This document shows positions 3,192-57,100 of a stretch of 59,601 bases of DNA, piece after piece. The DNA is from an uncultured Mucispirillum sp. Lineage in GTDB: Bacteria; Chrysiogenota; Deferribacteres; Deferribacterales; Mucispirillaceae. Position 1 is the stretch's first letter. Every line of letters begins with the position of its first letter. A program made the translations under genes and the position numbers. The notes below the pieces were generated by a model that saw nothing but the letters and a program-made list of their open reading frames with translations, ran no database searches and had not been told where the DNA came from. The stretch is from contig CALVEY010000014.1 in the NCBI GenBank assembly GCA_944326705.1, forward strand, positions 1 through 59,601. The letters are read 5' to 3'.

Positions 3192-4106
3192 ATGAAAATA
3201 GCAGAAAATATGTTAGAATTAATAGGTAATACCCCTATAGTAAAAATAAATAAATTAAATAACACAGATGCATTGATATATGCAAAATTAGAATCATTTA
3301 ATCCATTTTCCAGTGCAAAAGACAGAGTTGGGCTTGCTATGATAGAGCAGGCAGAGCGTGACGGACTATTAAAAAAAGGCGGCGTTATTATTGAGCCAAC
3401 AAGTGGAAATACAGGTATTGGTCTTGCTGGTGCTGCCACAATAAAAGGTTATCGTCTTATCCTTACTATGCCAGAAACTATGAGCATTGAAAGGCGTAAA
3501 CTGCTTAAAGCATTTGGTGCAGAAATTGTATTAACTGAAGGCAGTAAAGGTATGAGCGGAGCAGTTGCAAAGGCAGAAGAGCTTGCAAAAGAGATAGATG
3601 GTGCATTTATGCCACAGCAGTTTAAAAATAAAGCTAACAGCAGTATCCATAAAGCAACTACTGCAAAAGAACTTTATAATGATATGGATGGGAAAATTGA
3701 TATTTTCATAGCAGCAGTAGGCACTGGCGGCACAATTACTGGTGTTGGTGAGTATTTAAAAGAAAAAAACAGCAATATAAAAGTAATAGCAGTAGAGCCT
3801 GCATCATCGCCTGTTTTATCTGGAGGAAAAGCAGGTCCCCATAAAATACAGGGGATAGGTGCTGGGTTTGTGCCTGAAGTATTAAATACAAAAATATATG
3901 ATGAAGTAGTGCAGATTACTGATGATGAAGCATATAATATGGCAAAAGAGTTGGCTAAAAAAGAAAGTATTTTAGCAGGTATATCATCAGGAGCGGTGGT
4001 GGCTGCAGCTTTAAAAGTGGGTGCAAGAAAAGAAAATGCAGGCAAAAATATAGCTGTATTATTACCAGATACTGGTGAAAGGTATCTTTCTGTTTTAGCA
4101 GAATAG
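3192..4106 (+). CDS. cysK: Cysteine synthase A (O-acetylserine sulfhydrylase)
   Basis: A PLP enzyme that makes L-cysteine from O-acetylserine and sulfide in the cytoplasm. Its 304 residues match the family length. NPFSSAKDR carries the PLP-binding lysine at residue 43. TSGNTGIGLA (about residue 75) is the substrate-binding loop and GTGGTITG (about residue 178) is the phosphate-binding loop. The start ATG has GGAG at 3182-3185. It has its own terminator upstream and candidate promoter. rnr follows after 15 bases, so the two are probably cotranscribed. A CysM assignment is less likely given the motifs and length. Confidence 0.93.
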   Translation: MKIAENMLELIGNTPIVKINKLNNTDALIYAKLESFNPFSSAKDRVGLAMIEQAERDGLLKKGGVIIEPTSGNTGIGLAGAATIKGYRLILTMPETMSIERRKLLKAFGAEIVLTEGSKGMSGAVAKAEELAKEIDGAFMPQQFKNKANSSIHKATTAKELYNDMDGKIDIFIAAVGTGGTITGVGEYLKEKNSNIKVIAVEPASSPVLSGGKAGPHKIQGIGAGFVPEVLNTKIYDEVVQITDDEAYNMAKELAKKESILAGISSGAVVAAALKVGARKENAGKNIAVLLPDTGERYLSVLAE

Positions 4107-4121
4107 TTTAAGGATATTATT

Positions 4122-38329: not shown

Positions 38330-39271
38330 ATGAAAAAACAGTTTATTTCTGTTTTAATTCCTGCATATAATGAAGAAGAATGTCTGCATGAACTTTATAA
38401 AAGAGTAAGTGATGTTTTATCAAAACTTGAAAAATATGATTATGAAATATTAATAATCAATGACGGCTCAAAAGACAAAACATTAGAGATACTGCATGAT
38501 TTAAATGCAAAAGATAAACATCTGCAGTATGTAAATCTTGCAAGGAACTATGGTAAAGAAATAGCGATGGCAGCAGGTCTTGATTATGTAAAAGGCGATG
38601 TTGTTGTTATATTAGATGCAGATTTGCAGATTCCCCCAGAATATATTCCAGAAATGCTTAAATATTATGAAGAAGGTTATGATGATATTTATGGCAGAAG
38701 AAAATCAAGAGATGATGAAAGTTTTTTTAAAAGATTAGGAACAAAGATATACTATAAAGCATTACAGTCATTAACTCGTGTTGATATTCTAAAAAATACA
38801 AGTGATTTTAGGCTTTTAAGCCGCAGGGCAGTGGAAGCATTAAAGCAGTATAAAGAGCAGAGAAGATATACTAAAGGTTTATTTGCTTTAATAGGCTTTA
38901 AAAAGAAAGAGTTTATATATGAACCTGTTAAAAGATATGCAGGCAAGTCTAAGTGGAATTATTTTAGTCTTATAAATCTGGCAATAGAAGGTATTACATC
39001 ATTTTCTACATTTCCGTTAAGATTAAGCTCATTTTTAGGGATAATTGTTGCCACTATCGGGTTTATATATATACTTTTTTTAATACTTAAAACTATAATT
39101 TTTGGCGAGCCGGTTCGTGGATATCCAACTTTATTATCAATCATAGTATTTTTAGGCGGTATTCAGCTTTTATCCCTTGGAGTAATTGGTGAATATCTGG
39201 GTAGAATTTTTGATGAAGTGAAAAACAGACCACTTTATTTTGTAGAAAAATACAGCGGTGATGATAAGTAG
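38330..39271 (+). CDS. gtrB: GT2 family polyprenyl-phosphate glycosyltransferase (GtrB/DPM1-like)
   Basis: Transfers a sugar, usually glucose, from its UDP form to undecaprenyl phosphate on the cytoplasmic face. The catalytic domain (1-220) has LIPAYNEEECL, NDGSKDKTL and the DxD-type ILDADLQIPPEY (about residue 96), with RRYTKGLFALIGF and KSKWNYF later. Two C-terminal membrane helices (about 232-255 and 266-288) are typical for GtrB. A GtrA flippase gene starts directly after its stop and a Gtr-type glucosyltransferase follows, so the order is gtrB-gtrA-gtr. Confidence 0.88.
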   Translation: MKKQFISVLIPAYNEEECLHELYKRVSDVLSKLEKYDYEILIINDGSKDKTLEILHDLNAKDKHLQYVNLARNYGKEIAMAAGLDYVKGDVVVILDADLQIPPEYIPEMLKYYEEGYDDIYGRRKSRDDESFFKRLGTKIYYKALQSLTRVDILKNTSDFRLLSRRAVEALKQYKEQRRYTKGLFALIGFKKKEFIYEPVKRYAGKSKWNYFSLINLAIEGITSFSTFPLRLSSFLGIIVATIGFIYILFLILKTIIFGEPVRGYPTLLSIIVFLGGIQLLSLGVIGEYLGRIFDEVKNRPLYFVEKYSGDDK

Positions 39272-39679
39272 ATGAAGTTTATAAAAATATTTTATGATAA
39301 AACATTTTTAAAATTTATAATAGTAGGCATAGTTAATACAGCAGTTGGTGCAGCGGTAATGTTTGCATTATATAATATATTTCACTGCACTTACTGGGTA
39401 TCTTCTACTATGAATTATGTTGTAGGAAGTATTGTCAGCTTTTTTTTAAATAAATATTTTACATTTAAAAGCAAGGTTTTTTCTTTTAAAGAAGTGCTTT
39501 ATTTTACAGTAAATATTGCAGTCTGCTTTTTTATCGCTTACTCTCTTGCAAAACCATTTGCTATGTATTTATTAAGTGGTTATTCTATAACTGTGCAGGA
39601 AAATACAGCAATGTTTATTGGTATGGTAATATTTACAGGTCTTAATTATTTATCACAAAGATTTATTGTTTTTAGATAG
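39272..39679 (+). CDS. gtrA: GtrA-family flippase
   Basis: A 135-residue protein with four membrane helices and the family motifs FLKFIIVGIVNTAVGAAVMF near the start, then YVVGSIVSFFLNKYFTFK. GtrA moves the undecaprenyl-phosphate sugar made by GtrB to the periplasmic side. The ATG lies directly after the gtrB stop codon with no gap. Confidence 0.88.
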   Translation: MKFIKIFYDKTFLKFIIVGIVNTAVGAAVMFALYNIFHCTYWVSSTMNYVVGSIVSFFLNKYFTFKSKVFSFKEVLYFTVNIAVCFFIAYSLAKPFAMYLLSGYSITVQENTAMFIGMVIFTGLNYLSQRFIVFR

Positions 39680-39688
39680 GGAGTAATA

Positions 39689-41173
39689 ATGGTAAAGAAA
39701 TTAAATAATATAAGTTTAGAATTGTTATTGGTTGATATTTATGAATTTTTTATAAAATATAAGTTTATAATTTTAACTGGTTTTTTAACTGGCATAATTA
39801 TAAATGCTATTGACATATTTACAATTAAATTTGGAATAGATTCTGAAGTTTATGCAATTATAGACAGCCCGCAAATATATTATGATACTCAACGTTATGG
39901 GTCTTGGTTATTATACTATTTAATTCCTTTTGCAAGATACCATATAGTTTCACAAATTATTGGCATATTTACTCTTACTCTAGCTGGACTTTTAACAGTT
40001 TCAAGGCACAATCTGCCAAACAGTGCTAAATTATTATTTGTATTATTATTTGTAACTTATCCAAATTTTGCATTTTTACAGTATTTTTATTTTCAATCGG
40101 CTTATAATTTTATAGGACTTTTATTGGTAGTTATTGCATACAGACTTATAGAAAAAAATAATATTTTATTATATATTCCAGCAGTCATATTTTTATTTAT
40201 TGGTATTTCTTCATATCAGTCAAATATAGCAGTTTTTTTATCAGTTATGATGATAAATGTTATTCTTGATTATCTTGATAATAAAAATATTAGAATTTCA
40301 ATAATGCATATGATTAAACCAACAATTATGTTGATTATATCTGTTCTTATTTACTATATAATTATTATATTTGCACACAAAGGACTAGATGGTTATCACA
40401 GTGATTTTATTGGATATAAGCATGGAATAATTGAAGGCTTAGGAAATGCATTTACAAATATATGGCGTGTTTTATCAAGTAATGGTTTTCAAGGCAGTCA
40501 TACTGCAAATATAATTATTACAGTTCTTGCAATAGTATATGTATTATATTTTATTATTAATTATAAAAAATATAAAGAAAATATTAAATTTATTTTTTTA
40601 ATGCTTTTATGGCTGCTTTCTATTTTTTCTTTAAATATTGTTTTTGGAAGTGCACTACCTATAAGAGCAAAATTAGCTGTTGCATTTTATCCTGCATTTA
40701 TTTTAATGCTTGTATATTATTTTAATAATAAATTAAAATGTTTAGTTATTATTTTATCAGTTTTTATTATAGGTTTTCATACAGTCTATATTGTAAAATA
40801 TCAAATGAGTTATTATATTTCGTTTAAGCAGGATGAAGTTACAGCAAATAATATAATCAATAAAATTTATAGTAAATATCCAGAAATAAATACGGGTAAG
40901 TATAAAATCAATTTTACAGGTGTAGTAGACAACTCTAATAAACATCCTTTAATAAACGGAAAAGATATATTTAGTGCATCATTTTTTTCATGGGACGGTG
41001 GAAATAGTTATAGAATACTTTCTTTTTTAAAACTTTTAGGGTTTCCTGCTGAAATATCATTAGGTAATATTACAGATGATATGATGAACAATGTAAAAGA
41101 TATGCCAGCATATCCAGATAATGACTGTGTTCAATTAATAAATGATACAGTTATTATTAAACTAAGTAATTAA
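39689..41173 (+). CDS. Gtr-type membrane glucosyltransferase (Glucos_trans_II-like)
   Basis: A 494-residue protein with about 10-12 membrane helices and a periplasmic C-terminal domain (about 385-494). The N-terminal region (GIDSEVYAIIDSPQIYYDTQ, then RYGSWLLYYLIPFARYH) matches the GtrII-like glucosyltransferase group, with acidic residues in the first large loop. Such proteins attach the flipped glucose to O-antigen or another surface glycan and set its linkage. Low-GC codon use is stronger here than in gtrB/gtrA, as common for the variable member of gtr operons. GGGAG precedes the ATG. Confidence 0.78.
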   Translation: MVKKLNNISLELLLVDIYEFFIKYKFIILTGFLTGIIINAIDIFTIKFGIDSEVYAIIDSPQIYYDTQRYGSWLLYYLIPFARYHIVSQIIGIFTLTLAGLLTVSRHNLPNSAKLLFVLLFVTYPNFAFLQYFYFQSAYNFIGLLLVVIAYRLIEKNNILLYIPAVIFLFIGISSYQSNIAVFLSVMMINVILDYLDNKNIRISIMHMIKPTIMLIISVLIYYIIIIFAHKGLDGYHSDFIGYKHGIIEGLGNAFTNIWRVLSSNGFQGSHTANIIITVLAIVYVLYFIINYKKYKENIKFIFLMLLWLLSIFSLNIVFGSALPIRAKLAVAFYPAFILMLVYYFNNKLKCLVIILSVFIIGFHTVYIVKYQMSYYISFKQDEVTANNIINKIYSKYPEINTGKYKINFTGVVDNSNKHPLINGKDIFSASFFSWDGGNSYRILSFLKLLGFPAEISLGNITDDMMNNVKDMPAYPDNDCVQLINDTVIIKLSN

Positions 41174-41184
41174 ATAGGCTGCTT

Positions 41185-42006
41185 ATGTCATTTATAATAA
41201 TTATCCCCACATATAATGGCTGTAACACTATTGAAAGGCTTTTACAATCTATTAAAAAGCAGAGTATTCAGCCAGAAAAAATATGTATTATTGATTCATC
41301 ATCTACTGATAATACAGTAGAGATATGCAGAAAATACGGCTGTGATATTACTGTTATTGATAAAGGCAGCTTTAATCACGGATTAACAAGGCAAATGGGA
41401 ATAGATAATAATAACGGCTGTGATTATGCAGTATTTATGACACAGGATATTTTATTGTATGATAATAATACCTTAGAAACTTTGCTTTCATCATTTAATC
41501 ATGAAGATGTATCTATCGCTTACGGCAGGCAGCTGACAGATGAAACTTCATCATTTATAGAAAAAATAAGCAGACAGTTTAACTATCCACCATATTCTAT
41601 TATAAAATCAAAAAATGATATTGAAAAATACGGCATATCAACTGCTTTTTGTTCCGACAGCTTTGCAGCATATAAAATAAAGGATTTACTTTCTGTTGGT
41701 GGTTTCCCAAAAACTGATTTTGCAGAAGATATGCTTGCAGCAGCAAAAATTATATTAATGGGCAAAAAGGTTTATTATAATGCAGATGCTGAGATAATAC
41801 ACAGTCACCCATATTCTATAAAAACTGAATACATGCGCGGCAGAGCAATAGGTAAGATGCATAAAGAAAATAAATGGCTTATAGATACTTTTGGCAGAGC
41901 AGAAAGTAAAGGAAAAGAGCTTTTAAACTCTCTTCCAATCCATAAAAAAATATTATATATGTTACAAGCTTTGCCTAAATTTTTAGGTTATAAAAGAGAA
42001 ATTTAA
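41185..42006 (+). CDS. GT2 glycosyltransferase (rhamnosyltransferase-like)
   Basis: A soluble 273-residue GT-A enzyme. It has IIIPTYNGCNTIERLLQSI and IDSSSTDNTVEICRKYGC at the start, followed by SFNHGLTRQMGI, MTQDILLYDN (metal and nucleotide-sugar site) and GGFPKTDFAEDMLAAAKI. The H-G-x-T-R motif and the F-x-E-D-x-x region are seen in dTDP-rhamnosyltransferases, but the sugar cannot be assigned. It follows the Gtr enzyme after 11 bases, so it should act on the same glycan. Confidence 0.82.
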   Translation: MSFIIIIPTYNGCNTIERLLQSIKKQSIQPEKICIIDSSSTDNTVEICRKYGCDITVIDKGSFNHGLTRQMGIDNNNGCDYAVFMTQDILLYDNNTLETLLSSFNHEDVSIAYGRQLTDETSSFIEKISRQFNYPPYSIIKSKNDIEKYGISTAFCSDSFAAYKIKDLLSVGGFPKTDFAEDMLAAAKIILMGKKVYYNADAEIIHSHPYSIKTEYMRGRAIGKMHKENKWLIDTFGRAESKGKELLNSLPIHKKILYMLQALPKFLGYKREI

Positions 42007-45600: not shown

Positions 45601-45654
45601 GCTAAAATTGTGCCAGTAGAAACATTTACTGGTGATGTAACACCTATAGAATAA
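42622..45654 (+). CDS. Large lipoprotein with bacterial Ig-like (BIG_2) domains
   Basis: The 1010 residues begin with a lipoprotein signal whose lipobox cysteine is in LLFSCSSS. At least five BIG_2-type domains follow (about 48-135, 270-355, 360-445, 450-535, 540-640). They are marked by repeated phrases such as YTSSNPDIAEVSSDGYVTI and YSTSNEQVATVSPTGVVTAL. The last 350 residues form a different beta-rich, Trp/Tyr-rich part beginning KGYYTIDKVEY. Such proteins display binding domains at the cell surface. The next gene is a paralogue of the same design. AAGGAG precedes the ATG. Confidence 0.85.
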   Translation: MIKRGIVFIILLSFLFPLLFSCSSSSGNSSSGSVQHIYEDSSDSAVQVSGIKIASNYIELVKEAGVDLQYNISAVIQPENAENKTLHYTSSNPDIAEVSSDGYVTIKDFGTFNVKIQSEARQEIWQQVDFYVRENIITNIDVENNPLSFFGSYSISQYGIDKEPDTNIGGSLSINVDRSAENTVELKLLFNGLDMPVSIDMDNLSEMSYEESGAALFSYLQGDVKDSESVVVKLKADENLSLIDNGILQSGQTLYLALKKEYDLVPGQSHVEEVPVSVTEIKVNDEHKLDRLISTTYTLSPVVLPVNASNKAVTYSTSNEQVATVSPTGVVTALKEGSADITVTSVSNGEVIGKTAFAVVDSTKRVEDIVFDEMDTNIYIGTPAMVKAAAVPSDATYNDITYYSKNPTVATVNSATGVVTPRRVGTAIIAAVSDKGSFEKTITLNVGINEQLEPVKGIINIPSKLEVSLESQTSIQLSGKVVPTYADNTALDYKADDKGCVSVNESGLITALAAGTCTVTVSSVKYPDIKKEVSVAVRQDEEKIYVTSINVNEAPSTLYIGHTDHTIIPEIIPANANVDHELTAAIDDTTVARLEQVGSGYKVTPLKEGSIIVTLETANGVTQEVQLNVKKVMNVKGYYTIDKVEYTLGNKTETFTPENDNLQGEFAINLLEDKYNIKGRLQLTPQNPLTSYTFNNWRYLYENKEIMLDTEDKYSTQTKEILATQNIKVTGADTIEYTYTQESFKAVIYLTKVNDNTKDILDRTMYVTPVDMEKDPHSAEGYYEMTWFYGNSFNTTMLERYPAIYSGSKDEMPLSSNIGTKYHKECPDKTAWYDWSACYNGGGGANDSVTNYKGAFAVKVDGTGESAQLSSIMKVQTQGHQNYNLQSWAKYIHSTFGSSELLQNSSHNGVLVNTSLDALVQTYKSNEGSKPAMIAYTQMQDNIIQFEVFLDLNFEYRFMYKAKKVSDRYIELPTDKFVDGDVSDRTPPEIPDLAKIVPVETFTGDVTPIE

Positions 45655-45663
45655 TTTTTATTC

Positions 45664-45686
45664 CTGCCTGTAACATAAGCAGGCAG
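45664..45686 (+). repeat. CTGCCTG hairpin between the two lipoprotein genes
   Basis: CTGCCTG (45664-45670) pairs with CAGGCAG (45680-45686) around a nine-base loop. There is no T-run after it, so it probably shapes the mRNA and does not end it. A longer version of the same core occurs at 8711-8748. Confidence 0.55.
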
Positions 45687-45706
45687 TATTATAAATGAGA
45701 GATTAT

Positions 45707-48550
45707 ATGAAAAAATATAAAATATTTAATAAGTTATTACTTCTTTTTGCTGTGATTTTTGGTATTTTTGGCTGCACAACATCAGGAGATAAGGGCGGTG
45801 GTGTGCAGGTAGTGTATCATCCTGCAGAAACAACACCACAGGTAGTTGTTTATTCTAAATATGTACCTGTGAATATTGCAGAAACGCAGAGTTACAGCAT
45901 AAATGCTTCTGTTATTCCAGAAGAAGAGTCTTCATCTGCACTTGTTTATTCAAGCAGTGATAATTCAATTGCTGCTGTATCTAATGATGGTAATGTAACT
46001 ATTAATAAAGCAGGTATTGCAGTAATAAATATTGCTCTTGAAAAAGACAACACAGTGAATAATCAAGTGATTATTAATGCATATGATACACTATCAGATG
46101 AAGAAAATAACAGCACACCAGTTATGGCAGTTGCTGTTGATACTACTTATATAAAACTGCAAAAGGGCAGCGGACTGCAGGTATTTCCAAGTGTCCGCCC
46201 GGGTAATGCAGCAAATAAAGAGCTGGTGTATCTTTCTACTAATACTAATGTAGCAGAAGTGAAAGATGGTTTTATTCAGTCTAATAATGAGGGTAGTGCT
46301 GGAATTATAATTTATTCTAAATCAAACCCTGAAAAATATGCATTTATAAATGTAGATGTAGTTACTGCGGAAGAAGGTAATATTAGTAGTGATTGGACAG
46401 CCCCAGAAGGCACTGCTCCAATTGATTTAAATAAAGACCCTATGTCATTAATTGCAAAATATAAGATATTAAATTATTCAATTAATGGTGCAGAATTAGA
46501 AAATGCAGATGATGAAAGCAGTCTTCGTGTAAATGTTAATTTAGATGAACTTGGAGCAGGTATTGTAAAAATCTTAATGTATGTAAACCTAAACGGTAAA
46601 GAAGTTCGCCTTATTCAAAAGAAAAATATGGGCGATTACGGCAGTATACCAGATATTTTTACATCACTTGGTGCAAAAATAACAGGTGATTATACAATGG
46701 AGTTTACTCTTGACCCTGTAAATTATACAGAGCTTGCAAGGCAGGGTATGGTAAATAAAGGTGATACACTTGTATTAAATATTGGTAAAATGGAAGCCCT
46801 TGCTCCAGCTGGTGGTTTAGGAAGCGATATTGTTTTTGATGAAAGCACTGTGCCAGTTGAAGGGGAAAATACAGATGATATTGTAACAGAAAATCCAGAA
46901 GATGATTCAAATGAAAGCACTGAAACTCCAGATAATGCTGCTCCAGAAGAAATACAAGTAGAAAGTATTAAATTTGATATATCAGAATTCAGCCCTATTA
47001 AGATTAATGAGACTGTGCAGATAAATGCAACAGTTTATCCAGAAACAGCAGATAATAAAACTCTTACATGGTCTAGTTCTAACGAAAGTGTAGCCACAGT
47101 AGATAGTGACGGTCTTGTAACTATTCATCAAAATGGCAGTGCAGTAATTACTGCAAAAGCTGTAAATGGCAAAAAAGCAGAAATGAAAATACAGCCAGCA
47201 ACAACTATTGACAGCTATACTCTTCATAACGATACAATAGAGCTGACTATGAATGTAGATGCTGAAGCTTATTTAACTTATAAAGTTTATCCTGAAATAT
47301 TAAATGGAACAGATCTTAATGCAGAATATGTTTCTGATAATGAATATATAGTTACTGTTGATAATACAGGTAAAATTACAGCAGTAGGAGTTGGCGAAAC
47401 ATTTGTGCGTGTTACAATTAATAATATTTCAAAAGAATGTTATATAGTAGTAAAACCAGAGCCTGAAAATGTAACCCCAGTTAGTGAAATACAGCTTCCT
47501 AATGGTAATGAAGGACGATATAAATTATCAGAAGGGCAGTTGACACTGGAACCAAAGGTTATACCAGAAGATGCATATAATAAAAGATTAAAATATCAGT
47601 CATCAAATACTCAAGTTGCAGATGTAGATGCTAATGGTTTAGTAACATTTAAAAAGACAGGCGAAACAAATATTACAATAACTTCTTCCAGCAACCCAGA
47701 GATACAAGCAGTATATAAGCTTATTGTAGAAACACTGCCAACAAAAATAGTATATGAAAGGTTTGATTATGGTATAGAGATTAATAAAACTGAAAGCATT
47801 ATACCAATATTTGAAGGCAACCCGTCTAACACTAATGCTGTATATTCAATAGATAATCAGTCAGTAGCATCTGTAGATGCTCAAACTGGTGCAGTTACAG
47901 GTTTATCATCTGGCTCTGCCACATTAACTGCGAAAAGTGATAATGGCTTAACTGCTACTACACTTATTACTGTATATAATCCTGTAAAACAAGGTGATGT
48001 ATCATCATTACAAGGCACTTATGAGATAGTAGACTTTAATCAGGCTAACGGTCATTTAGATGTTGGAACAAACGCTTATGGCGGTGTTGAAAGAATGATA
48101 GGTGAAATGACTATTGAAGTTACAGGCAATACTGTTAAGATAAAAAGTAAAATCCAAATGGACAGCAGTGCTATGAATAATTTTAGTGGTGTGCTTGGTC
48201 AAGGTATAGAGCAGGCTAGGAAAGGTCAATTCCAATATACTGAATATACTGCTGCAGAATATAATCAAAATGGTTTTGGCACAGCAGGGCAGACAAGTGC
48301 AAGAGTTACCCATGATAATGATAAGCTAAAACTTTATCAGGAGTGGAAAGAAATGGGTATTGCAACTGTTCAGGTTAATACATGGATTAAGAAAAAATCT
48401 GACAGTATAAAAGATTTGAAAAAAGATTATTTCCATTGGAGTAAAAACGGGGCAAATTATGATACACCAGCAAATGCTACAGCACATCATACTAATATAA
48501 AAGCTCCAGAAAAAGAGCCGTATTATACTTATGGTTTAATTACAAAATAA
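45707..48550 (+). CDS. Large lipoprotein with BIG_2 domains, paralogue of the preceding gene
   Basis: The 947 residues start with a lipoprotein signal whose lipobox cysteine is in FGIFGCTTS. About six Ig-like units follow, for example WSSSNESVATVDSDGLVTI (about 460) and YQSSNTQVADVDANGLVTF. An acidic spacer lies near 395-420 and a C-terminal beta-rich part begins QGTYEIVDFNQANG. GAGAG four bases before ATG 45707 makes this the start; the ATG at 45695 overlaps the ribosome site region. It lies 52 bases after its paralogue, probably in one transcript, and ends in a clear terminator. Confidence 0.83.
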   Translation: MKKYKIFNKLLLLFAVIFGIFGCTTSGDKGGGVQVVYHPAETTPQVVVYSKYVPVNIAETQSYSINASVIPEEESSSALVYSSSDNSIAAVSNDGNVTINKAGIAVINIALEKDNTVNNQVIINAYDTLSDEENNSTPVMAVAVDTTYIKLQKGSGLQVFPSVRPGNAANKELVYLSTNTNVAEVKDGFIQSNNEGSAGIIIYSKSNPEKYAFINVDVVTAEEGNISSDWTAPEGTAPIDLNKDPMSLIAKYKILNYSINGAELENADDESSLRVNVNLDELGAGIVKILMYVNLNGKEVRLIQKKNMGDYGSIPDIFTSLGAKITGDYTMEFTLDPVNYTELARQGMVNKGDTLVLNIGKMEALAPAGGLGSDIVFDESTVPVEGENTDDIVTENPEDDSNESTETPDNAAPEEIQVESIKFDISEFSPIKINETVQINATVYPETADNKTLTWSSSNESVATVDSDGLVTIHQNGSAVITAKAVNGKKAEMKIQPATTIDSYTLHNDTIELTMNVDAEAYLTYKVYPEILNGTDLNAEYVSDNEYIVTVDNTGKITAVGVGETFVRVTINNISKECYIVVKPEPENVTPVSEIQLPNGNEGRYKLSEGQLTLEPKVIPEDAYNKRLKYQSSNTQVADVDANGLVTFKKTGETNITITSSSNPEIQAVYKLIVETLPTKIVYERFDYGIEINKTESIIPIFEGNPSNTNAVYSIDNQSVASVDAQTGAVTGLSSGSATLTAKSDNGLTATTLITVYNPVKQGDVSSLQGTYEIVDFNQANGHLDVGTNAYGGVERMIGEMTIEVTGNTVKIKSKIQMDSSAMNNFSGVLGQGIEQARKGQFQYTEYTAAEYNQNGFGTAGQTSARVTHDNDKLKLYQEWKEMGIATVQVNTWIKKKSDSIKDLKKDYFHWSKNGANYDTPANATAHHTNIKAPEKEPYYTYGLITK

Positions 48551-48561
48551 TTTTATATAAG

Positions 48562-48589
48562 TGCGGGTGTAAAAGCCCGCATTTTTATT
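48562..48589 (+). terminator. Terminator of the lipoprotein pair
   Basis: TGCGGG (48562-48567) pairs with CCCGCA (48576-48581) and is followed by TTTTTATTTTT. It lies between convergent genes. Confidence 0.8.
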
Positions 48590-48590
48590 T

Positions 48591-49019
48591 TTATATATAT
48601 TCAGGCAGCACAGGCCATATTACATTTTCAGGAAAATCAATCTGCTTTGTAATATCTCTTAAAGTTTGTTTATACTGTAAAAGTGCGTTATAGTATTCCT
48701 GATTTTCTTCTATTATGCCTAAAGCTGCCTGTTCCTGATATTTTAATAAAATAATATCTGCTTCCCGTAACAGATTATCTCGTTTACTGCGTATATATTC
48801 TTCTAAGTTATCTTCTGCCACTTTATAGGCTTTTGGAATATGTTTATCAACTTGAATATTATTTTCAAGAATATATTCTTCTAAAGCATCATATTCCTGT
48901 CTGTATTCATCATTATTTGGTATATGATACGGCATATCATTTTTTATAACAATATATGAGCCGTCATCTTGTTTTTCTATTTTTTTTATCTGGTTTATAA
49001 ATGAAATTTTATTAAACAT
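48591..49019 (-). CDS. Phage tail fibre assembly-type protein
   Basis: The 142 residues end in the pattern of phage tail assembly chaperones: SKRDNLLREADI, a helical stretch, YKQTLRDITKQI and FPENVIWPVLPEY. The usual form is K-R-D-x-L-L...Y-R-x-x-L-R-D-I...P-x-x-v-x-W-P. Such proteins help fold or attach the tail fibre encoded next to them. The first 80 residues are acidic and variable. It is the last gene of a three-gene minus-strand unit and starts 15 bases after the fibre gene. Confidence 0.7.
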   Translation of the reverse strand: MFNKISFINQIKKIEKQDDGSYIVIKNDMPYHIPNNDEYRQEYDALEEYILENNIQVDKHIPKAYKVAEDNLEEYIRSKRDNLLREADIILLKYQEQAALGIIEENQEYYNALLQYKQTLRDITKQIDFPENVIWPVLPEYI

Positions 49020-49034
49020 ATTTTATCTCTCTTA

Positions 49035-51638
49035 TTATGCAATTTTTGTTAGTATATGAATGAAATCATAATAACTGTTATCAAGCAGTGAGCCGCCTGC
49101 CGAAAGGTATACATTTCCTAAATTTATATTGCATGCTCCTGTGCCGGGAGTAAATACAAGAGTTTTTACAAGCCATGTTCCACCTGCTGGTACATACTGG
49201 TTAACAGGGCTGTTTCCATAAGAATATCTGTAAATTACATCACCTGATTTATAATTTGTTCCATTAGATGCTGCAGGTATTAATTTATGGGCTGTGCTTG
49301 TTTTACCTATTGCACCATGGGTTAAACCTGTTCCTCCCATTTTTTCTGGTATAGAACCATCATCATTTCTTATTTTCACCCAGCTGCCAACAGAATTATT
49401 AGGACTGCATATTCTTTCTAATACAAGATGTGAGTTTCTTTCTTTATATATTTGAAGATTATATGTATATGCATCGTTATCTGAAAAAGTAGTTGAAGAC
49501 TGCCCAAGTATTGTTTCAATTAAAATTTCGCCACTGCTGCTTAAATCTGATGAAGGAGCATTTGTTAAGTAATCTTTTCTGCATACAACTACTCCATTTT
49601 TTGCTTTATTTAAATCAACACGTTCATAGTTATTTCTATTAAAATTATTTATTTTTAAATTATACTGTGCTTGTTCAAGGGTATTACCACCTGTGCCGCC
49701 TTTACTTATGGGGAGTATTCCAGTTATGGCATTATTAGTAAGAGCAATATTATTAAGAAGAGCTAATGCGCCTAACGACACACTTAAATTATCTGCATTG
49801 ATTTTGCCGTTACTGTTTATAATTTTAAGCCAGTATGCAGAAGCAGATACTGGGTTTTGGGGACTTGCTGAGCCGTTTGCTGCTTTGCAGTAGTAAAGTG
49901 CATTATCACTTCCTAAAACAAAAGCTCCAGTTTTATACTCTGCTGTGCTGTTCCAGTAAACATTATTTCCTGCCATAAGCTCTAATGCATCAGTTATTTT
50001 ATTATTTATTTCTTCATTTACTTCTTCTTTACTGATTTTTTTAATACTGCCGTTTTCTTCTGCTATAATGTTTGTGATATCAGAATATAATGAATTAGAT
50101 GATACTATTACATTATTATTAGATAAATCAAGATTTTCTATATCTTCCTGTTTTATCATTTTTTTCTGCCAGCTGCTCCATGTATCACTGCTGAAATAAC
50201 GCATATAACCAGTATTAAATAAATAATCTGGACTTATAAACTGATGTATTTTATTATTTTCTTCCTGCACAAGCATATATCCAGTTTCTAAACCAGAGCC
50301 GTTATTAAGATGCTTTTCTATAATATATATTCCTGCTGTTTTTATGCTGTTATAATCATCTATTAAGCTTTCACTTCCTATATTAGTAATTTTTATCTGC
50401 CTTGTATCAAGTGAAGTACATTCAATAAGTAAATCATCGCTGTATACAGGATACTGGGAGCTATTTTTACCAGTTCTATATGCAAGATAATCTTTTAAAG
50501 TCTGGGGATTAACTGCTTTATCTGTATTTTCACCTTGTATTATTTCATTTAAAGTGGCAAACATAATCCCTGCAAGCCCGCCATTTGATGAGCGTACTGC
50601 ATTTAAGTTATTTTCTTCTGCAGCTTCTGAGAATATCATAAAAAAATAATCTGTTCTTAAAATATTATTCCATAAGCCGTAAGGACATGGTGTTTTTATC
50701 CACCTGATACCGTCACTGCTTGCAAGAGTCACCCCTGTTGATGATGCAAGGGTATATACATTTGCACCATAACAGATATCTTTCCACGGTTCATTATAGC
50801 TTAAGCTTATCTTTTGCCATACTGGTGTTTTATTAAGAATATCTTTTTCATTACAGTATATAAGCCGTGTTTCTCCCTCATAAGCACAGGCTGTAAATCT
50901 TTCCTTACCATAAGTTAAAGATATCCATGAAGAAGAGGGCATATCTATTTCATTCCAAGATAAACCGCCATCTATACTGTATATTGAAAGGGGGCTGCCT
51001 GATATACCCACTGCCATTATAATATTTGATGAAGAATATAATATTTTTGAAATCTGCATATTTTCATATTCACATACTTTCTGCCAGCTTTTGCCGTAAT
51101 TTTCTGAAATAAATATTCTGCCAGATACTGTGCCTGCAATAAATTTATTATGGTTATGTGTGATACATGAAAAATTATCATCAGCTATTATACTTTCTTC
51201 CCATGATGCTCCATTATCTGTACTTTTAAAACATTTACCACTATTAGAAAGCAGTATAAATATTTCATTTCCATAAGCTGCAGCAGTTAAGTTATCATTT
51301 ATCTGTTTTTCTTCCCAGTTTGAGCCATAATCATAAGATAAACATATTTTTCCGTCAGCAGATACTGCTATTATAGTATTATTTCCATAAGCAGAAGATA
51401 CCCATAAACCTTGTGGCATATATAATGCGTCCCATGGGGCATATTTTATTTCACTTGCTTTTTGATTAAGTGCATTAGTAAGCCATGATATATCTATCTG
51501 CCCGTTAAAATCGGCAGGTTTTTCTGATATTATATCATTAAGGGAAAGGCTGCCTTTTTCCTGCACATATACAGGGCTTGTTCTGTTTACTGGCTGATTT
51601 TTTGATACTTCTACTGATATATAAGATGTATTATTCAT
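49035..51638 (-). CDS. Phage tail fibre-like protein with Asp-box beta-propeller
   Basis: The 867 residues carry five Asp-box (BNR) motifs, S-x-D-x-G-x-x-W, between about 85 and 340: SYDYGSNWEE, STDNGASWEE, SENYGKSWQK, SIDGGLSWNE and SSDGIRWIK. They predict a sialidase-like propeller, but the sialidase active-site residues are not evident, so binding is more likely than cleavage. Later parts are typical for fibres: a knob-like stretch TGYMRYFSSDTWSSWQKKM, a carbohydrate-binding-like YKTGAFVLGSDNALYYCKA and the fibre phrase ISKGGTGGNTLEQAQYNL. Its start overlaps the preceding coiled-coil gene by eight bases. Confidence 0.72.
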   Translation of the reverse strand: MNNTSYISVEVSKNQPVNRTSPVYVQEKGSLSLNDIISEKPADFNGQIDISWLTNALNQKASEIKYAPWDALYMPQGLWVSSAYGNNTIIAVSADGKICLSYDYGSNWEEKQINDNLTAAAYGNEIFILLSNSGKCFKSTDNGASWEESIIADDNFSCITHNHNKFIAGTVSGRIFISENYGKSWQKVCEYENMQISKILYSSSNIIMAVGISGSPLSIYSIDGGLSWNEIDMPSSSWISLTYGKERFTACAYEGETRLIYCNEKDILNKTPVWQKISLSYNEPWKDICYGANVYTLASSTGVTLASSDGIRWIKTPCPYGLWNNILRTDYFFMIFSEAAEENNLNAVRSSNGGLAGIMFATLNEIIQGENTDKAVNPQTLKDYLAYRTGKNSSQYPVYSDDLLIECTSLDTRQIKITNIGSESLIDDYNSIKTAGIYIIEKHLNNGSGLETGYMLVQEENNKIHQFISPDYLFNTGYMRYFSSDTWSSWQKKMIKQEDIENLDLSNNNVIVSSNSLYSDITNIIAEENGSIKKISKEEVNEEINNKITDALELMAGNNVYWNSTAEYKTGAFVLGSDNALYYCKAANGSASPQNPVSASAYWLKIINSNGKINADNLSVSLGALALLNNIALTNNAITGILPISKGGTGGNTLEQAQYNLKINNFNRNNYERVDLNKAKNGVVVCRKDYLTNAPSSDLSSSGEILIETILGQSSTTFSDNDAYTYNLQIYKERNSHLVLERICSPNNSVGSWVKIRNDDGSIPEKMGGTGLTHGAIGKTSTAHKLIPAASNGTNYKSGDVIYRYSYGNSPVNQYVPAGGTWLVKTLVFTPGTGACNINLGNVYLSAGGSLLDNSYYDFIHILTKIA

Positions 51639-52353
51639 TTGCTGCTCCTTTTGTTTTTATTACTGCAGCATAATGAAGAGCAGAATAACAGCCATTTTCT
51701 ACAGGCACATTTAAAGGAGCACATGCCCATTTTTTACTAATTTCTGCATATTTTTTACATTCATCTGTTTTAGCAGATACTGCATTAATGTATTTATTAT
51801 ATATATTATCCATATTTAATCGGACAGCCATATATTTTGCTGCCACTTTATTTTCTGCCTGCTCCATAAGGTCTGATATATTAACTTGTGCTTTATTAAA
51901 TGAAAATTCTGCTTCTTTGATTTTTGTATCAGTATCTTGTTGAAAGGCTGTAAGTGTTGCTATATATTTTTCTGTTTCCTGCTTTATAGAGTTTTTATAT
52001 TCCTCTGCCTGATTAATAATTTTAATATATTCATTTTTTAAGTTTTCTATTTCCTGTATGCTTTTTTCTACTGCTGCAAGCTGATTTACTGCATTTTCCA
52101 CAGCTTCCTGCATATTTATAAAATTATTTGTTTTTTCTGCTACAATATCTTTTATATCATTTGTAATCATTTCTATATTTGATGATACTGCTTTTAACTC
52201 ATCAATGTTAAAAACAGCACCTAAATCTGTATAACTGCTGTTTTCAAAAAGATGAGCTTTATCATCACTTACTAAGAAAAATGGTGATATTGTTTTTATT
52301 TTTCCATTATCATTTATAGATATTTTTTGTGTGTTCCAAGAATATAGTTTCAT
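51631..52353 (-). CDS. Coiled-coil tail-fibre-associated protein
   Basis: The 240 residues have a short N-terminal beta part. A long coiled coil (about 55-200) is rich in Glu, Lys, Asn and Ala. A C-terminal CYSALHYAAVIK recalls the Y-S-A-x-H-Y-A phrase found in many fibre stalks. It leads the minus-strand tail module. It has GGAG just upstream of the ATG and overlaps the propeller gene. It is probably the stalk or baseplate-side adaptor of the fibre. Confidence 0.6.
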   Translation of the reverse strand: MKLYSWNTQKISINDNGKIKTISPFFLVSDDKAHLFENSSYTDLGAVFNIDELKAVSSNIEMITNDIKDIVAEKTNNFINMQEAVENAVNQLAAVEKSIQEIENLKNEYIKIINQAEEYKNSIKQETEKYIATLTAFQQDTDTKIKEAEFSFNKAQVNISDLMEQAENKVAAKYMAVRLNMDNIYNKYINAVSAKTDECKKYAEISKKWACAPLNVPVENGCYSALHYAAVIKTKGAANE

Positions 52354-52533
52354 ATTATCCTCCGTTGATAGCAGATATTAGCATATATAAAAATAGGGCT
52401 GTCCAATAAATGCAAAAAAGTCCATTAAGGTATAAAAAGTCCGAAAAAACAAATAAACATACTTAAATATGTCAATAAATCATTATTTTTTAATTAAATT
52501 GTGTATTAATTGTTGTTGTGCAGATGCAAATAG

Positions 52534-52562
52534 TTGACACAAGATGCTTAAGTGTATATGAT
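52534..52562 (+). promoter_or_regulatory. Strong candidate promoter of the 501-residue lipoprotein
   Basis: TTGACA and TATGAT are separated by 17 bases. The leader is about 20 bases and includes AGGAGGG (52578-52584). Confidence 0.65.
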
Positions 52563-52589
52563 ATTAATTATAATTTTAGGAGGGTCAGT

Positions 52590-54095
52590 ATGACTAAATT
52601 TTTATCTTTATTAGCAGCAGCTGGTATTGGTATATTAGCTGCAGGCTGTGCAGACGATAGTTCATCTAATTCCAGTACAACGGTAACACCAGAAGTATCT
52701 AATTATGTAGATATTTCAACTTTACCTATTGAAGTAGGAGAGTATTCAACAGAAACTTATACTTTTCGTATAGCAAATCCATTTGATAATGCATCTTACG
52801 AACCTGCTGATAATGCAAGTGCAGATGTAGTTTTAACTTATAATGGAACTCAAATAACAAATATTTCTGAACTTGACAAGGATGATACAACTGCTGCATT
52901 AGGAACTGATTTAATAATATTAAGCTCAACTTGTGGTGACAGCACAACTTATGGCACTATTCCAACAGTTTTAGCAAAAGGTCAAGGCTGCGAATTTACA
53001 TTTAAAATCGCTCCACAGGCTGCTTTTATGTATGTAAATAGACTTGCAGTAGAATATAAAAAACAAAGCTTTTTTGGCACAGGCACTTCTGGCACAGGTG
53101 ATGCAGATAGTAGTGTATTAACAGAAGAAGCATTTCTTGAAAAAGCAAAAGCAAGTGGAGCATATCAGTTAAATGAAACAGTTTTAAAATATGCTGGTAA
53201 AAGAAGTGAATATAATGTTAATGGCACAATTTACAGAGATGCTTCCCAAGGCACAGAAATAAACCATGTATTCAGCAAAGCAACTGGCAGTTTAGCAAAT
53301 GGTGCAGCTGGTGAAAGTGTTATTACAGAAACTTTTGACGGCGGCTCTTACGGGGCAACTCATACTGTTACATTTTTAGATATTGATAATAATGCAGGCA
53401 CTATCACTCCTTTTGCAAGTGGTGTAAATGCTAAAATGGATATGAATACATCACTTTTAACATTCTATACATTTAATTTTTCAAGCCAGAATACTTCTTC
53501 ATCTAATACATGCAGAGTATCAGCAAGAACTGCTGACACAATGACTATAACATGTGATGCTAATGCATCTGCAAACTTGACTATCGGTCTGCATGCTGGT
53601 GATGATACATATTATAAAGAAAAATATCTAAAATATGATAAAGCATATTATATAACATCTTCTTATGCTCAGGCAGCTGATGCTCAAGCTGAACCAGCAC
53701 TTAATATTTATATGCTTTTAGAAAGAGCATCTAGTTCAACTGTAACAACTGATACAACTAACCTTGAATTAAATGTTCAATGCTGGGAAAGTGCGACAAA
53801 TGGCACTTTAAACGGCAGCCCGCAAAATCTTACAAATTTAGATTTACAAATATTTAAAAAATATGAAAATATTTATAACAGTGATGGCTCATTAACACAA
53901 GCTCCAGTAGATTATGTATTAGTAAAAGGAATGTGCGGCAGTGTGGAAGTGAATACAGAATATCCACTTGCAGATTTTACATGGCAGTCTAGCAATGTAA
54001 CTTATCCAACATTAGTTACGCAGGTTAAAACATACAGCCCTGTAACAAAAAGTGCGCTTGACGGTATTGTTCGTCATAATTTGCAAGCTAGATAA
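52590..54095 (+). CDS. Lipoprotein of unknown function
   Basis: The 501 residues start with a lipoprotein signal ending in ILAAGCADD. A Ser/Thr-rich linker follows, then beta-rich, Asp/Thr-rich sequence with several cysteines (for example LSSTCGDSTT, GQGCEFTFKI, SNTCRVSAR, MTITCDAN, NVQCWES, KGMCGSVEV). An early domain of about 130 residues resembles an abnormal-spindle-type or choice-of-anchor fold, weakly. AGGAGGG sets the start at ATG 52590; a longer frame from 52518 would include the promoter. It is a single-gene unit with strong promoter and terminator, which suggests high expression. Confidence 0.72.
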   Translation: MTKFLSLLAAAGIGILAAGCADDSSSNSSTTVTPEVSNYVDISTLPIEVGEYSTETYTFRIANPFDNASYEPADNASADVVLTYNGTQITNISELDKDDTTAALGTDLIILSSTCGDSTTYGTIPTVLAKGQGCEFTFKIAPQAAFMYVNRLAVEYKKQSFFGTGTSGTGDADSSVLTEEAFLEKAKASGAYQLNETVLKYAGKRSEYNVNGTIYRDASQGTEINHVFSKATGSLANGAAGESVITETFDGGSYGATHTVTFLDIDNNAGTITPFASGVNAKMDMNTSLLTFYTFNFSSQNTSSSNTCRVSARTADTMTITCDANASANLTIGLHAGDDTYYKEKYLKYDKAYYITSSYAQAADAQAEPALNIYMLLERASSSTVTTDTTNLELNVQCWESATNGTLNGSPQNLTNLDLQIFKKYENIYNSDGSLTQAPVDYVLVKGMCGSVEVNTEYPLADFTWQSSNVTYPTLVTQVKTYSPVTKSALDGIVRHNLQAR

Positions 54096-54116
54096 TATAA
54101 TAATCTTATATAAAAT

Positions 54117-54148
54117 AAAAGGGCTGGTTAATAAACCAGCCCTTTTTT
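54117..54148. terminator. Terminator between lipoprotein gene and metH, both strands
   Basis: AAAAGGGCTGGTT (54117-54129) pairs with AACCAGCCCTTTT around a short loop. T-runs follow on the plus strand and, less evenly, on the minus strand. It serves both convergent genes. Confidence 0.85.
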
Positions 54149-54166
54149 AATATCTGCATTTATATG

Positions 54167-57100
54167 TTAATATTTAATATCTGGGTGGTGGATAATAAAA
54201 GCAGAAGTAGAATATTCTGGGTGCATTTGGTTAGACTGGCTTAATGTTACACCAATTCTTTCGCTTTGAAGCATATTTGCAATAACAGTATTATTTTCAA
54301 TATCTGGGCAAAGTGGATATCCAAAGCTGAAGCGTTTACTTCTATATTTTCCAGCGACTGCATTTTCTGGCGTATCACTGCTTTTATCAATAAGGTTTAA
54401 TTCTTTTCTAATAAGCCTGTGAGTATATTCTGCTAAACTTTCAGTAAGCTCAGTAAAAAGACCATGAGCCATATAGTAGTTTTTATAGTCGTTATTTTTA
54501 AAAAGCTCTGCACAATACTGGGCTGGTTTTTCCCCTAATGTAACAATCTGCATAGGCAGCACATCAAAGCCATCTTCACTGCTTGATATATAGTCTGCAA
54601 GGCTGTATTTTGGCACAGCTTTACTGTCTGGGAAATTAAATGTATGCAGCAGAGCATCATCTTTAGCATATATTTCTATAGAATTATTTATGCTTCTGCA
54701 TTTAAAATAGCCATATATTGCTTTTGCTTCAACAGCTTTTTTATTAGTAATATCTTTAAACAGGTTTTTAAGCTCTGGAATAACTGTTTCATTAATTAAA
54801 AATTCATATTCTTCGCAGCTTAAATCTTTCTTTTTATAGCCCCATATATTTGAGAATAAAAAGTTTTTATTAAGATATTTATACACATCATAAATATCTG
54901 CACTAATCACTTTTGTGCCATAAAATGGTGGTGTAGGTATATCTTTAATATCTAGCTTTCTAATATCTGCCCGTTCTTCTTTTTTCACATCAAATTCTTC
55001 TATTATTTCTATAACTGGTTTTGCATTTTCTTTAACTGCTGCTGCTTTTTTAGAGCCATCCATTGCAGATATATTATCAAAAGCATCTTTACAGTAGAAT
55101 ACTTTATCAGGCATAATCGGAGCACAGCTTTCATTTACAAATTTATTAGTTAAAGCAGCACCGCCAAGCATAATTTTAATATCAGGAAGTTCTTTTGCTA
55201 TTTCTTCAAGATTTTCTTTCATAATAAGGGTAGATTTTACAAGCAGACCGCTCATTCCAATAGCCTGAGCACCTACTTCTTTTGCTTTTTGTATCATCTC
55301 TGCAACTGGCACTTTTATACCAAGATTATGCACATTAAAGCCGTTGTTGCTCATAATAATATCTACTAAATTTTTTCCAATATCATGAACATCACCTGCA
55401 ACTGTTGCAATAACTATTTCACCTTTTGATGCTCCCTGCTGTTTTTCAAGGTGAGGCTCTAATATAGATACAGCTGCTTTCATAGTTTCTGCAGATTTTA
55501 ATACGAAAGGTAAAAGCATTTTCCCTTCACCAAACATATCCCCAACCTGCTGCATTGCAGGGAATAGTATATTGTTAATAATATCTTCTGCCCTTTTAGT
55601 TTCTAAAAGAGATGATATTATTGTATCTAATTCTGTTTTATCGCCTTTTATAATTTTTAAAGGAAGCACTTCAAGTGGAGGTAAATCTTTACTTATTTCT
55701 TCAGTTTCTACTTTTGCATTTGCAAAATGCTCTATAAAGTTTGGCAGAGCATTTTCTTTAGCATATATTAAATCAAGGCAGTAACTTACATCATCTTGCG
55801 ACATATTTGCAATAGGAGTTAATTTAGAAGCATGAACTATTGCTGTATCAAGCCCTGCTTTTACTGCTTCATTTAAAAATACAGAGTTTAATACCTGTCT
55901 TGAAGCAGGTGATAATCCAAAGGATACATTACTTACACCAAGAGTAGTTTTTACGCCTTTTAAGTTTTCTTTAATCATTTTGATAGCTTCTAATGTTTCT
56001 ATTGCTGCATTTGTTAATGTTTCATCTCCTGAGCCTATAGAAAATGTAAGAGTATCTATTATTAAATCTTCTGGTTTAAATTTATATTCATTTACCCATG
56101 TATTATAAAGTCTTTCAGCAATTTGGAATTTTTTTTCAGCAGTAGCAGCCATTCCTTCTTCATCAATAGTTAAAGCTACAACACAAGCTGGGTGGTCTTT
56201 TACCACATCAAGCATTTTATAAAGCTTTGTTCCACCGTCTTCAAAATTTACAGAATTTATAATAGGTTTACCTGAATATCTTTCAAGGCTTGCTTTAACA
56301 GTTTCTGGGTCAGTAGAATCTATTACAAGTGGAGCCATAAGGAGAGAATTTAAAACAGGCACAATATTTTTATAGTCTTCTATTTCATTTCTGCCAGCAT
56401 AAGCAAGTGATAAATCTATAAAATGGGCGGCATCTTCCTGATTTTTGCATATTGCAGTAATACCGTCAATATCTTCAGCTAAAAGCATTTCTCTAAAAGC
56501 TTTTGAGCCTGTGGCATTTGCTCTTTCGCCAATCATAGCAGGTTTTGGGTTCTGCTCTAATGATACAGCAGTAAAAAGGCTTGCAGCTTCCCCAAGATAT
56601 GCTTTTTCATCTCTTTTTGGCACTGCTCTTCCTTTTGCCATTTCACTTAACATTTTTATATGGGTTTTATCTGTTCCGCAGCAGCCGCCTGCCATAGATA
56701 CTGGATATTTATCCATTAAGTTTTTCATAATGGCAGTAAATTTTTCATCATTCATTGGGTATATTGTTTTGCCGTCTACAGTTTCAGGCATACCAGCATT
56801 AGGAGAAATATAAATTCTGCCCTGCCATATATTAGCCAGTGATGCAATGGCAGGCTCCATCATATCAGGCCCCATTGCACAGTTAAGACCAAGAGCAAAT
56901 ACAGGCATACCAGCCATAACTGCAGAAATTGCAGAAATATCTGAGCCTGTTAAAAGTGTAAAGTTACTTTCAACAGTGAAAGATACAAGTATAGGAGTAT
57001 CAGTATTTTTACGCCTGTTAGCTTCTTTACAGGCATTAACTGCAGCTTTTAACTGTAAAATATCCTGTGCAGTTTCTATATTATATAAATCCACATCAAC

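What the first reader, a model, noticed from the sequence alone, without database searches (positions are those of the whole stretch)
48591..52353. Isolated tail-fibre module with an Asp-box propeller in a chromosomal setting
Seen: a chaperone-like gene, an 867-residue fibre with five Asp-box motifs, and a coiled-coil adaptor, overlapping on one strand. They are flanked by lipoprotein genes and metH with no other phage genes. Inference: a relocated receptor-binding cassette for a phage-tail-like particle (tailocin) or prophage encoded elsewhere, or a surface adhesin derived from it. The propeller suggests binding of sialylated or other host glycans such as mucin.
Basis: partly seen in the sequence, partly recalled or inferred. 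Interest (0 to 1): 0.58.

Follow-up and report, generated by a model that had tools for sequence, protein, structure and literature searches.

The report
Orphan phage tail-fibre operon, kept genus-wide
A small set of genes for the grasping fibre of a bacterial virus sits alone at one fixed place in the chromosome of the gut bacterium Mucispirillum, is kept intact by selection across the genus while its gripping tip is swapped with resident viruses, and is present even in genomes where no virus tail to carry it was found.

Summary
The three-gene module is real: a tail-fibre assembly chaperone (Pfam Phage_tail_APC), an 867-residue fibre and a coiled-coil adaptor. It is not a recent stray. The genome belongs to Mucispirillum. 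Adaptor homologues occur in 9 of 10 genus genomes and in 0 of 49 others searched, and all 9 sit at the same chromosomal site. The fibre stem is under purifying selection (dN/dS 0.17-0.23). The tip plus chaperone is exchangeable: between two close species identity falls from 0.96 to 0.18 at the KGGTG collar, and tips come from the pool used by three kinds of resident prophage, whose fibres have different N-terminal anchors. The propeller is seven-bladed without a sialidase RIP motif, so the sialic-acid idea is unsupported. The window's genome carries a contractile-tail prophage with its own fibre. Two genus genomes, one a single 2.35-Mb contig, keep the module but lack Baseplate_J and tape-measure matches; 48% of that contig, read by eye, showed no tail cluster. 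Best reading: a domesticated, selected receptor-binding operon that acts in trans on a tail-like particle or phage not yet identified. New variant of a known kind.

The parts
48591..49019 (-). tail-fibre assembly chaperone, 142 aa (Phage_tail_APC)
   Evidence: Pfam 4.4e-13, over cut-off; PHROG tail fibre assembly
49035..51638 (-). tail fibre, 867 aa
   Evidence: ORF; gene order before a fibre chaperone; collar and tip homologous to prophage fibres; PHROG tail fibre 8.4e-4
50580..51443 (-). seven-bladed Asp-box beta-propeller (fibre residues 66-353)
   Evidence: AlphaFold2 block pLDDT mostly 72-94 over residues 71-340; VIA Z 31.2, rmsd 2.3 over 272 residues to virginiamycin B lyase; Ycf48 first in Foldseek; three strict Asp boxes
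50484..50570 (-). fibre residues 357-385, GIMFATLNEIIQGENTDKAVNPQTLKDYL, a motif typical of phage tail fibres (recalled)
   Evidence: conserved in the orthologues; the label rests on recall
49689..49703 (-). KGGTG collar (fibre residues 646-650); identity between two close species breaks just after it
   Evidence: G000 against G003: 0.96 identity for residues 601-650, 0.18 for 651-700
49038..49688 (-). exchangeable fibre tip (residues 651-867)
   Evidence: tips shared with prophage fibres; dN between G000 and G003 tips 1.13 with saturated dS
51631..52353 (-). coiled-coil adaptor (proximal fibre part), 240 aa
   Evidence: helix of residues 50-211; 9 genus genomes
52359..52363 (-). GGAGG ribosome-binding site of the adaptor
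   Evidence: sequence
52401..52442 (-). triple GGAC element, boxes exactly 19 bp apart
   Evidence: alignment of 9 upstream regions; in 10 genomes 8 matches with at most 1 mismatch, 7 of them at the module
48559..48584 (+). terminator-like hairpin between the convergent lipoprotein gene and the module
   Evidence: scan; consensus match only
38330..42006 (+). gtr-like cluster near the module (GtrB-like glycosyltransferase, GtrA, GtrII, glycosyltransferase 2); possible companion, link unproven
   Evidence: Pfam; the middle gene differs among species

Best explanation
The module is a domesticated phage receptor-binding operon that has sat at one chromosomal site since before the sampled Mucispirillum species diverged and is still under selection. 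The chaperone folds the distal fibre in the cytoplasm. The fibre (anchor, seven-bladed propeller, stem, KGGTG collar, tip) probably trimerises and joins end to end with the coiled-coil adaptor, whose N-terminus would attach to a tail. The conserved anchor, adaptor and propeller keep it compatible with one constant partner; the tip and its matching chaperone are replaced as a unit from the pool used by Mucispirillum prophages, so the fibre most likely recognises variable surface glycans of Mucispirillum itself. With no secretion signal and no tail gene nearby it must act in trans: on a kin-directed tail-like particle whose genes lie elsewhere (as the RcGTA tail fibre rcc00171 does), or on tails of incoming phages. 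Shown: identity, fixed site, purifying selection, tip exchange, conserved upstream element. Inferred: trimerisation, attachment, kin targeting, partner.
For: Chaperone family. Fibre and adaptor architecture. Adaptor in 9 of 10 genus genomes and 0 of 49 others; fibre matched over at least its first 650 residues in 8 of 10. Same left neighbour in 9 of 9 carriers (Big_2 lipoprotein in 8, the gtr glycosyltransferase in G003); metH within two genes on the right in 7 of 9, about 39 kb away in G006, contig end in G004. dN/dS 0.17-0.23 over 7 pairs for fibre residues 1 to about 650, 0.18-0.42 for the adaptor, against 0.07-0.12 for metH and 0.23-0.31 for the neighbouring lipoprotein. Tip break at the collar and tips shared with prophages. 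The long chaperone type goes with one tip family and the short type with the others in 14 of 14 fibre-chaperone pairs looked at. Upstream element. Unlinked fibre gene in a real particle: RcGTA, PMC10218006 (passages).
Against: No partner particle was found. The module is intact in G006 (one contig) and G001, which lack Baseplate_J and PhageMin_Tail; 0 of 10 genomes match Phage_portal or Phage-tail_3; phmmer with prophage proteins and a reading by eye of 48% of G006 gave only a T6SS and no tail cluster. In G004 the adaptor frame holds an in-frame TGA, so it may be broken there; G002 (86% complete) showed no module; G008 is split over contigs. Selection on the fibre is weaker than on metH and about as strong as on the neighbouring lipoprotein. 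The anchor matches no known phage.
Confidence: 0.5

Rival explanations
1. Decoy or hijack: the cell makes a fibre that is built into the tails of infecting or induced phages and spoils or redirects their progeny, a form of phage defence; the nearby gtr-like cluster would be the matching change of the cell's own surface.
For: Module present where no tail genes were detected. Tip pool shared with three prophage kinds. The gtr-like cluster is close and its type-specific gene varies.
Against: The module anchor shares nothing with the anchors of the 12 prophage fibres compared; the only shared stretch before the collar is 67-107 residues with kind B. No precedent was found in the searches made.
Confidence: 0.2
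2. Remnant of an old serotype-converting prophage: fibre, chaperone and gtr genes are the end of a P22- or SfIV-like prophage whose other genes were lost; now little more than a store of tips for recombination with prophages.
For: In Shigella phage SfIV a tail-fibre assembly gene (orf 22) lies next to an IS and the gtr cluster (orfs 25-27) (PMC3851460, passages). Here the gtr-like cluster lies 6.6 kb away, and in G003 it abuts the chaperone. Tips are exchanged.
Against: dN/dS well below 1 and intact frames in most species argue against a mere relic. Two lipoprotein genes lie between where the whole stretch was seen, except in G003. GtrA and GtrB-like genes also occur in chromosomes without phages (recalled). 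No integrase was found among the neighbouring ORFs scanned with Pfam.
Confidence: 0.25
3. The fibre is carried by the type VI secretion system, the only tail-like machine seen in the part of G006 that was sampled.
For: VipB in 8 of 10 genus genomes, G006 and G001 included.
Against: G009 (94% complete) has the intact module and no VipB match; nor has G008, 75% complete. No VgrG, PAAR or other T6SS domain in the three proteins.
Confidence: 0.04
4. Free surface adhesin binding mucin or sialylated glycans.
For: Propeller folds can bind glycans (recalled); the genus lives in mucus (PMC5285517, passages).
Against: No signal peptide-like N-terminus; a cytoplasmic fibre chaperone; seven-bladed fold, not sialidase-like, and no RIP motif.
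Confidence: 0.06

Closest known systems
RcGTA tail fibre (rcc00171) of Rhodobacter capsulatus
   Same: A chromosomal, domesticated tail-fibre gene; fibre and head-spike genes carry distant locus tags (rcc00171, rcc01080; PMC10218006, passages); binds the surface polysaccharide of kin
   Different: There the particle is known (its main cluster near rcc016xx is recalled); here no particle was found. No sequence relation was tested
Carotovoricin tail-fibre loci of Pectobacterium
   Same: Genus-conserved site with tail-fibre exchange among species by recombination (PMC13195805, abstract)
   Different: There the fibre lies inside a complete tailocin cluster
Shigella phage SfIV (tail-fibre assembly gene next to gtr cluster)
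   Same: Fibre chaperone and gtrA, gtrB, gtr(type) genes as near neighbours (PMC3851460, passages)
   Different: Here no other phage gene, no integrase found, and two lipoprotein genes between in most species
Mu-like and P2-like prophage fibres of Mucispirillum (kinds A, B, C)
   Same: Collar, tip and chaperone families
   Different: Different N-terminal anchors; too short for a propeller (266-531 aa) and no adaptor match

Membership tests
phage tail-fibre cassette (fibre plus assembly chaperone) | chaperone of a known tail-fibre-assembly family directly downstream of the fibre gene | tested here: met
   Pfam and PHROG; gene order
phage tail-fibre cassette (fibre plus assembly chaperone) | C-terminal tip homologous to fibres of real prophages | tested here: met
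   for example G009 module tip against G008 prophage tip, 68% over 190 residues
tailocin (R or F type) | headless tail structural cluster in the same genome | tested here: inconclusive
   Baseplate_J and PhageMin_Tail absent in 2 module-bearing genomes; Phage-tail_3 0 of 10; Phage_sheath_1 0 of 10, but it also missed a prophage sheath that PHROG names; 48% of G006 read by eye
gene transfer agent | terminase, portal and capsid without phage replication genes, conserved in the genus | tested here: inconclusive
   Phage_portal 0 of 10; Terminase_6N only in 3 genomes (G002, G005, G008); Terminase_6N missed the terminase of the G000 prophage, so negatives are weak
sialidase (Asp-box) | RIP motif | tested here: not met
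   no RIP string in the 867 residues
sialidase (Asp-box) | six-bladed propeller | tested here: inconclusive
   seven blades counted in a model without templates; best matches are seven-bladed proteins
type VI secretion component | always with a T6SS | tested here: not met
   G009 has the module but no VipB; a 94% complete draft
secreted adhesin | N-terminal export signal | tested here: not met
   no hydrophobic N-terminus; the lipoprotein neighbours have one

The most novel reading that the evidence does not exclude
A free-standing tail-fibre operon kept by selection in cells that make no tail of their own: the cell supplies the receptor-binding end to particles in trans, either a so far unseen kin-directed particle with undetectable structural genes or invading phages whose progeny it spoils. 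The fibre tip and the type-specific gtr gene nearby would form a recognition and self-protection pair that diversifies together.
Probability: 0.22. Interest if true: 0.8.

Novelty: new variant of a known kind. Interest (0 to 1): 0.52.

Why it matters
Fibre cassettes that I know of sit inside a prophage, a tailocin or a gene-transfer-agent system with a known particle. A vertically inherited, selected fibre operon without a detectable tail in a single-contig genome points either to an unrecognised phage-like particle in Mucispirillum, a common mouse-gut bacterium used in defined communities, or to host use of fibres against phages. The tip exchange with prophages makes kin recognition testable.

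Tried and rejected
Viral and plasmid origin: no relative in IMG/VR with the fibre, the adaptor alignment or the fibre alignment. A positive control with the baseplate protein of the G000 prophage was also negative, so this absence says little. INPHARED phages: one weak propeller match, Vibrio phage VP16T, 29% over part of the fibre, none for the adaptor. Plasmids: two Thermus records with propeller matches at 23%.

Regulon: the triple GGAC pattern was meant to lead to a partner cluster, but every match except one (G007:C31, one mismatch) is at the module itself. The control in that call, the pattern read backwards, gave 2 to 7 matches per genome, more than the pattern itself (0 to 2), so the count alone proves nothing; the case for the element rests on its conserved place upstream of the orthologues. 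Rfam on 48000-54500: only matches below the families' cut-offs.

Sheath, portal and terminase HMMs were less sensitive than hoped: sheath and terminase models missed prophage genes that PHROG names, and the portal model matched no genome although prophages are there. In the dN/dS script the G009 chaperone was cut at the end of a stretch (368 bases), and the G004 and G008 genes were left out of the adaptor and chaperone sets, G008 also of the fibre set, being broken or split.

Relic hypothesis: lowered because of dN/dS. Literature: the Loy et al. 2017 main text (PMC5285517, term searches only) gave no mention of a phage tail outside its reference list; searches of 'Mucispirillum' with 'prophage' and with 'tail fiber' listed no title or abstract start about this module. 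Supplements were not read.
Full report
What is there. The window is contig C14 of a 79-contig, 2.39-Mb genome, 96.87% complete. Contigs of six of its nine genus relatives have the same lengths as named Mucispirillum records, so the genus is Mucispirillum. On the minus strand lie a 240-aa adaptor, an 867-aa fibre and a 142-aa chaperone. The chaperone is a clear Phage_tail_APC member with PHROG tail-fibre-assembly matches. The fibre has an N-terminal anchor of about 65 residues, a propeller, a stretch with the tail-fibre motif GIMFAT..EI......K..NP.TLKDYL (family label recalled), a beta-rich domain at about 417-494 that recalls the pyocin knob (recalled, no call), a KGGTG collar and a tip. AlphaFold2 gave a confident propeller for residues 66-353 and little else (mean pLDDT 50.4). 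Its best structural relatives are seven-bladed propellers: Ycf48 first in Foldseek, virginiamycin B lyase Z 31.2, rmsd 2.3 over 272 residues by VIA. The adaptor is one long helix at residues 50-211 in a model of mean pLDDT 73.9.

It is ancestral, not stray. Among 59 genomes the adaptor is found in 9, all among the 10 of the genus, and in none of the 49 others. The fibre is matched over at least its first 650 residues in 8 genus genomes; G002 and G008 show only stretches like those of prophage fibres, and in G008 the adaptor and chaperone lie at ends of two contigs. In all 9 carriers the chaperone side faces the Big_2 lipoprotein gene, or in G003, which lacks both lipoproteins, the gtr glycosyltransferase. 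On the other side metH follows within two genes in 7; in G006 metH lies at about 1,960 kb, some 39 kb from the adaptor, with uvrB-like, flagellin-like and transposase-like genes between (by eye); in G004 the contig ends.

It is under selection. With a Nei-Gojobori script, fibre residues 1 to about 650 give dN/dS 0.17-0.23 over 7 species pairs, the adaptor 0.18-0.42, the chaperone 0.22-0.35, metH 0.07-0.12 (5 pairs) and the neighbouring lipoprotein 0.23-0.31 (2 pairs). Against this, the G004 adaptor frame holds one TGA (a 57% complete draft).

The tip is exchanged. Between G000 and G003 identity in 50-residue blocks is 0.72-0.96 up to residue 650 and 0-0.18 after it; the chaperone falls to 59% while the adaptor is 85% and metH 95%. 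The genus carries three kinds of contractile-tail prophage, which I call A (Mu-like, C1:33.7-60 kb of G000), B (G005:C14) and C (P2-like, G009:C137); PHROG names baseplate, tape measure, sheath, terminase and fibre proteins among them. Their fibres share collars and tips with the module: the G009 module tip is 68% identical over 190 residues to a G008 kind-A tip and 77% over 73 residues to a G009 kind-C tip, while it is 58% and 48% identical to module tips of G006 and G000. The anchors differ: none of the kind A or C fibres matches module residues 1-640, and kind B matches only over 67-107 residues near the collar. In 14 of 14 fibre-chaperone pairs looked at, the long chaperone goes with the IWKKI-type tip and the short one with the others (7 and 7). 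A pool shared with prophages that must infect Mucispirillum suggests that the module tip also recognises Mucispirillum; that step is inference.

Its own transcription unit. Upstream of the adaptor three GGAC boxes lie 19 bp apart (52401-52442). The middle box is kept in 9 of 9 aligned upstream regions and the third in 8 of 9; G006, G004 and G009 have changed outer boxes. With one mismatch allowed, the pattern occurs 8 times in 10 genomes, 7 of them at the module; the backwards control pattern is commoner, so conservation in place is the argument, not the count. What binds there is unknown. A terminator-like hairpin closes the unit at 48559-48584.

Which tail does it fit? In the window's genome there is a tail, that of prophage A, but it has its own fibre and chaperone. 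G006 (one contig of 2,347,083 bases) and G001 carry the intact module and have no match to Baseplate_J (8 of 10 genomes match) or PhageMin_Tail (8 of 10). Phage_portal and Phage-tail_3 match 0 of 10, Terminase_6N 3 of 10, Phage_sheath_1 0 of 10. Portal, terminase and sheath models also miss prophages that are there, so they weigh little. In 48% of G006, taken as alternate stretches, phmmer with prophage proteins found only the module, methylase-like and weak matches, and reading ORF starts by eye showed a T6SS at 520-529 kb but no tail or capsid cluster. That reading can miss diverged genes and anything in the 10.5-kb gaps. The T6SS is not a steady companion: VipB is found in 8 of 10 genomes and not in G009 or G008.

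The neighbourhood. A gtr-like cluster (GtrB-like glycosyltransferase, GtrA, GtrII, glycosyltransferase) lies 6.6 kb from the module. The gene or genes between GtrA and the last glycosyltransferase differ: GtrII in G000 and its 78% identical relative in G003, with an extra gene in G003; DUF6056 in G006 and G001, with DUF6311 in G001; none in G008. In serotype-converting phages gtrA and gtrB are conserved and gtr(type) is unique, and in SfIV a tail-fibre assembly gene is a near neighbour (PMC3851460, passages). So module and gtr may descend from one such prophage, or work as recognition and self-protection. This link is an idea, not a result.

Verdict. Observation confirmed; interpretation partly supported. 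Best reading: a domesticated receptor-binding operon acting in trans, partner unknown; the RcGTA tail fibre gene rcc00171 (PMC10218006, passages) is a precedent for an unlinked fibre gene, and carotovoricin (PMC13195805, abstract) for genus-wide tip exchange.

Noticed in passing
window 38330-42006: gtr-like surface glucosylation cluster whose type-specific gene is replaced by unrelated membrane proteins in related species.
   Followed up: partly
window 42622-48550: Two large Big_2 (Ig-like) proteins with lipobox-like N-termini; at least one lies next to the module in 8 of 9 carriers, both are missing in G003, which also has a different tip.
   Followed up: no
L058-L060 (G000:C1:10001-70000): A contractile-tail Mu-like prophage with fibre, chaperone, baseplate, tape measure, sheath and terminase; kin in G002, G003, G005, G007, G008.
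   Followed up: partly
L093 (G009:C137), fibre 3803-5398: Kind-C prophage fibre with a tip like the module's; the next ORF (130 aa) has no BLAST match to the module chaperone family, and the only chaperone match in G009 is the module's. Borrowing of the module chaperone is possible.
   Followed up: no
L228 (G006:C1:2300001-2309500): Tandem ORFs of 728 and 435 aa with the same N-termini that look like T6SS spike or effector genes (by eye).
   Followed up: no
G000 C30 and C1, G003 C10 and C6: Two VipB loci each, so perhaps two T6SS clusters in some species and none detected in G009.
   Followed up: no
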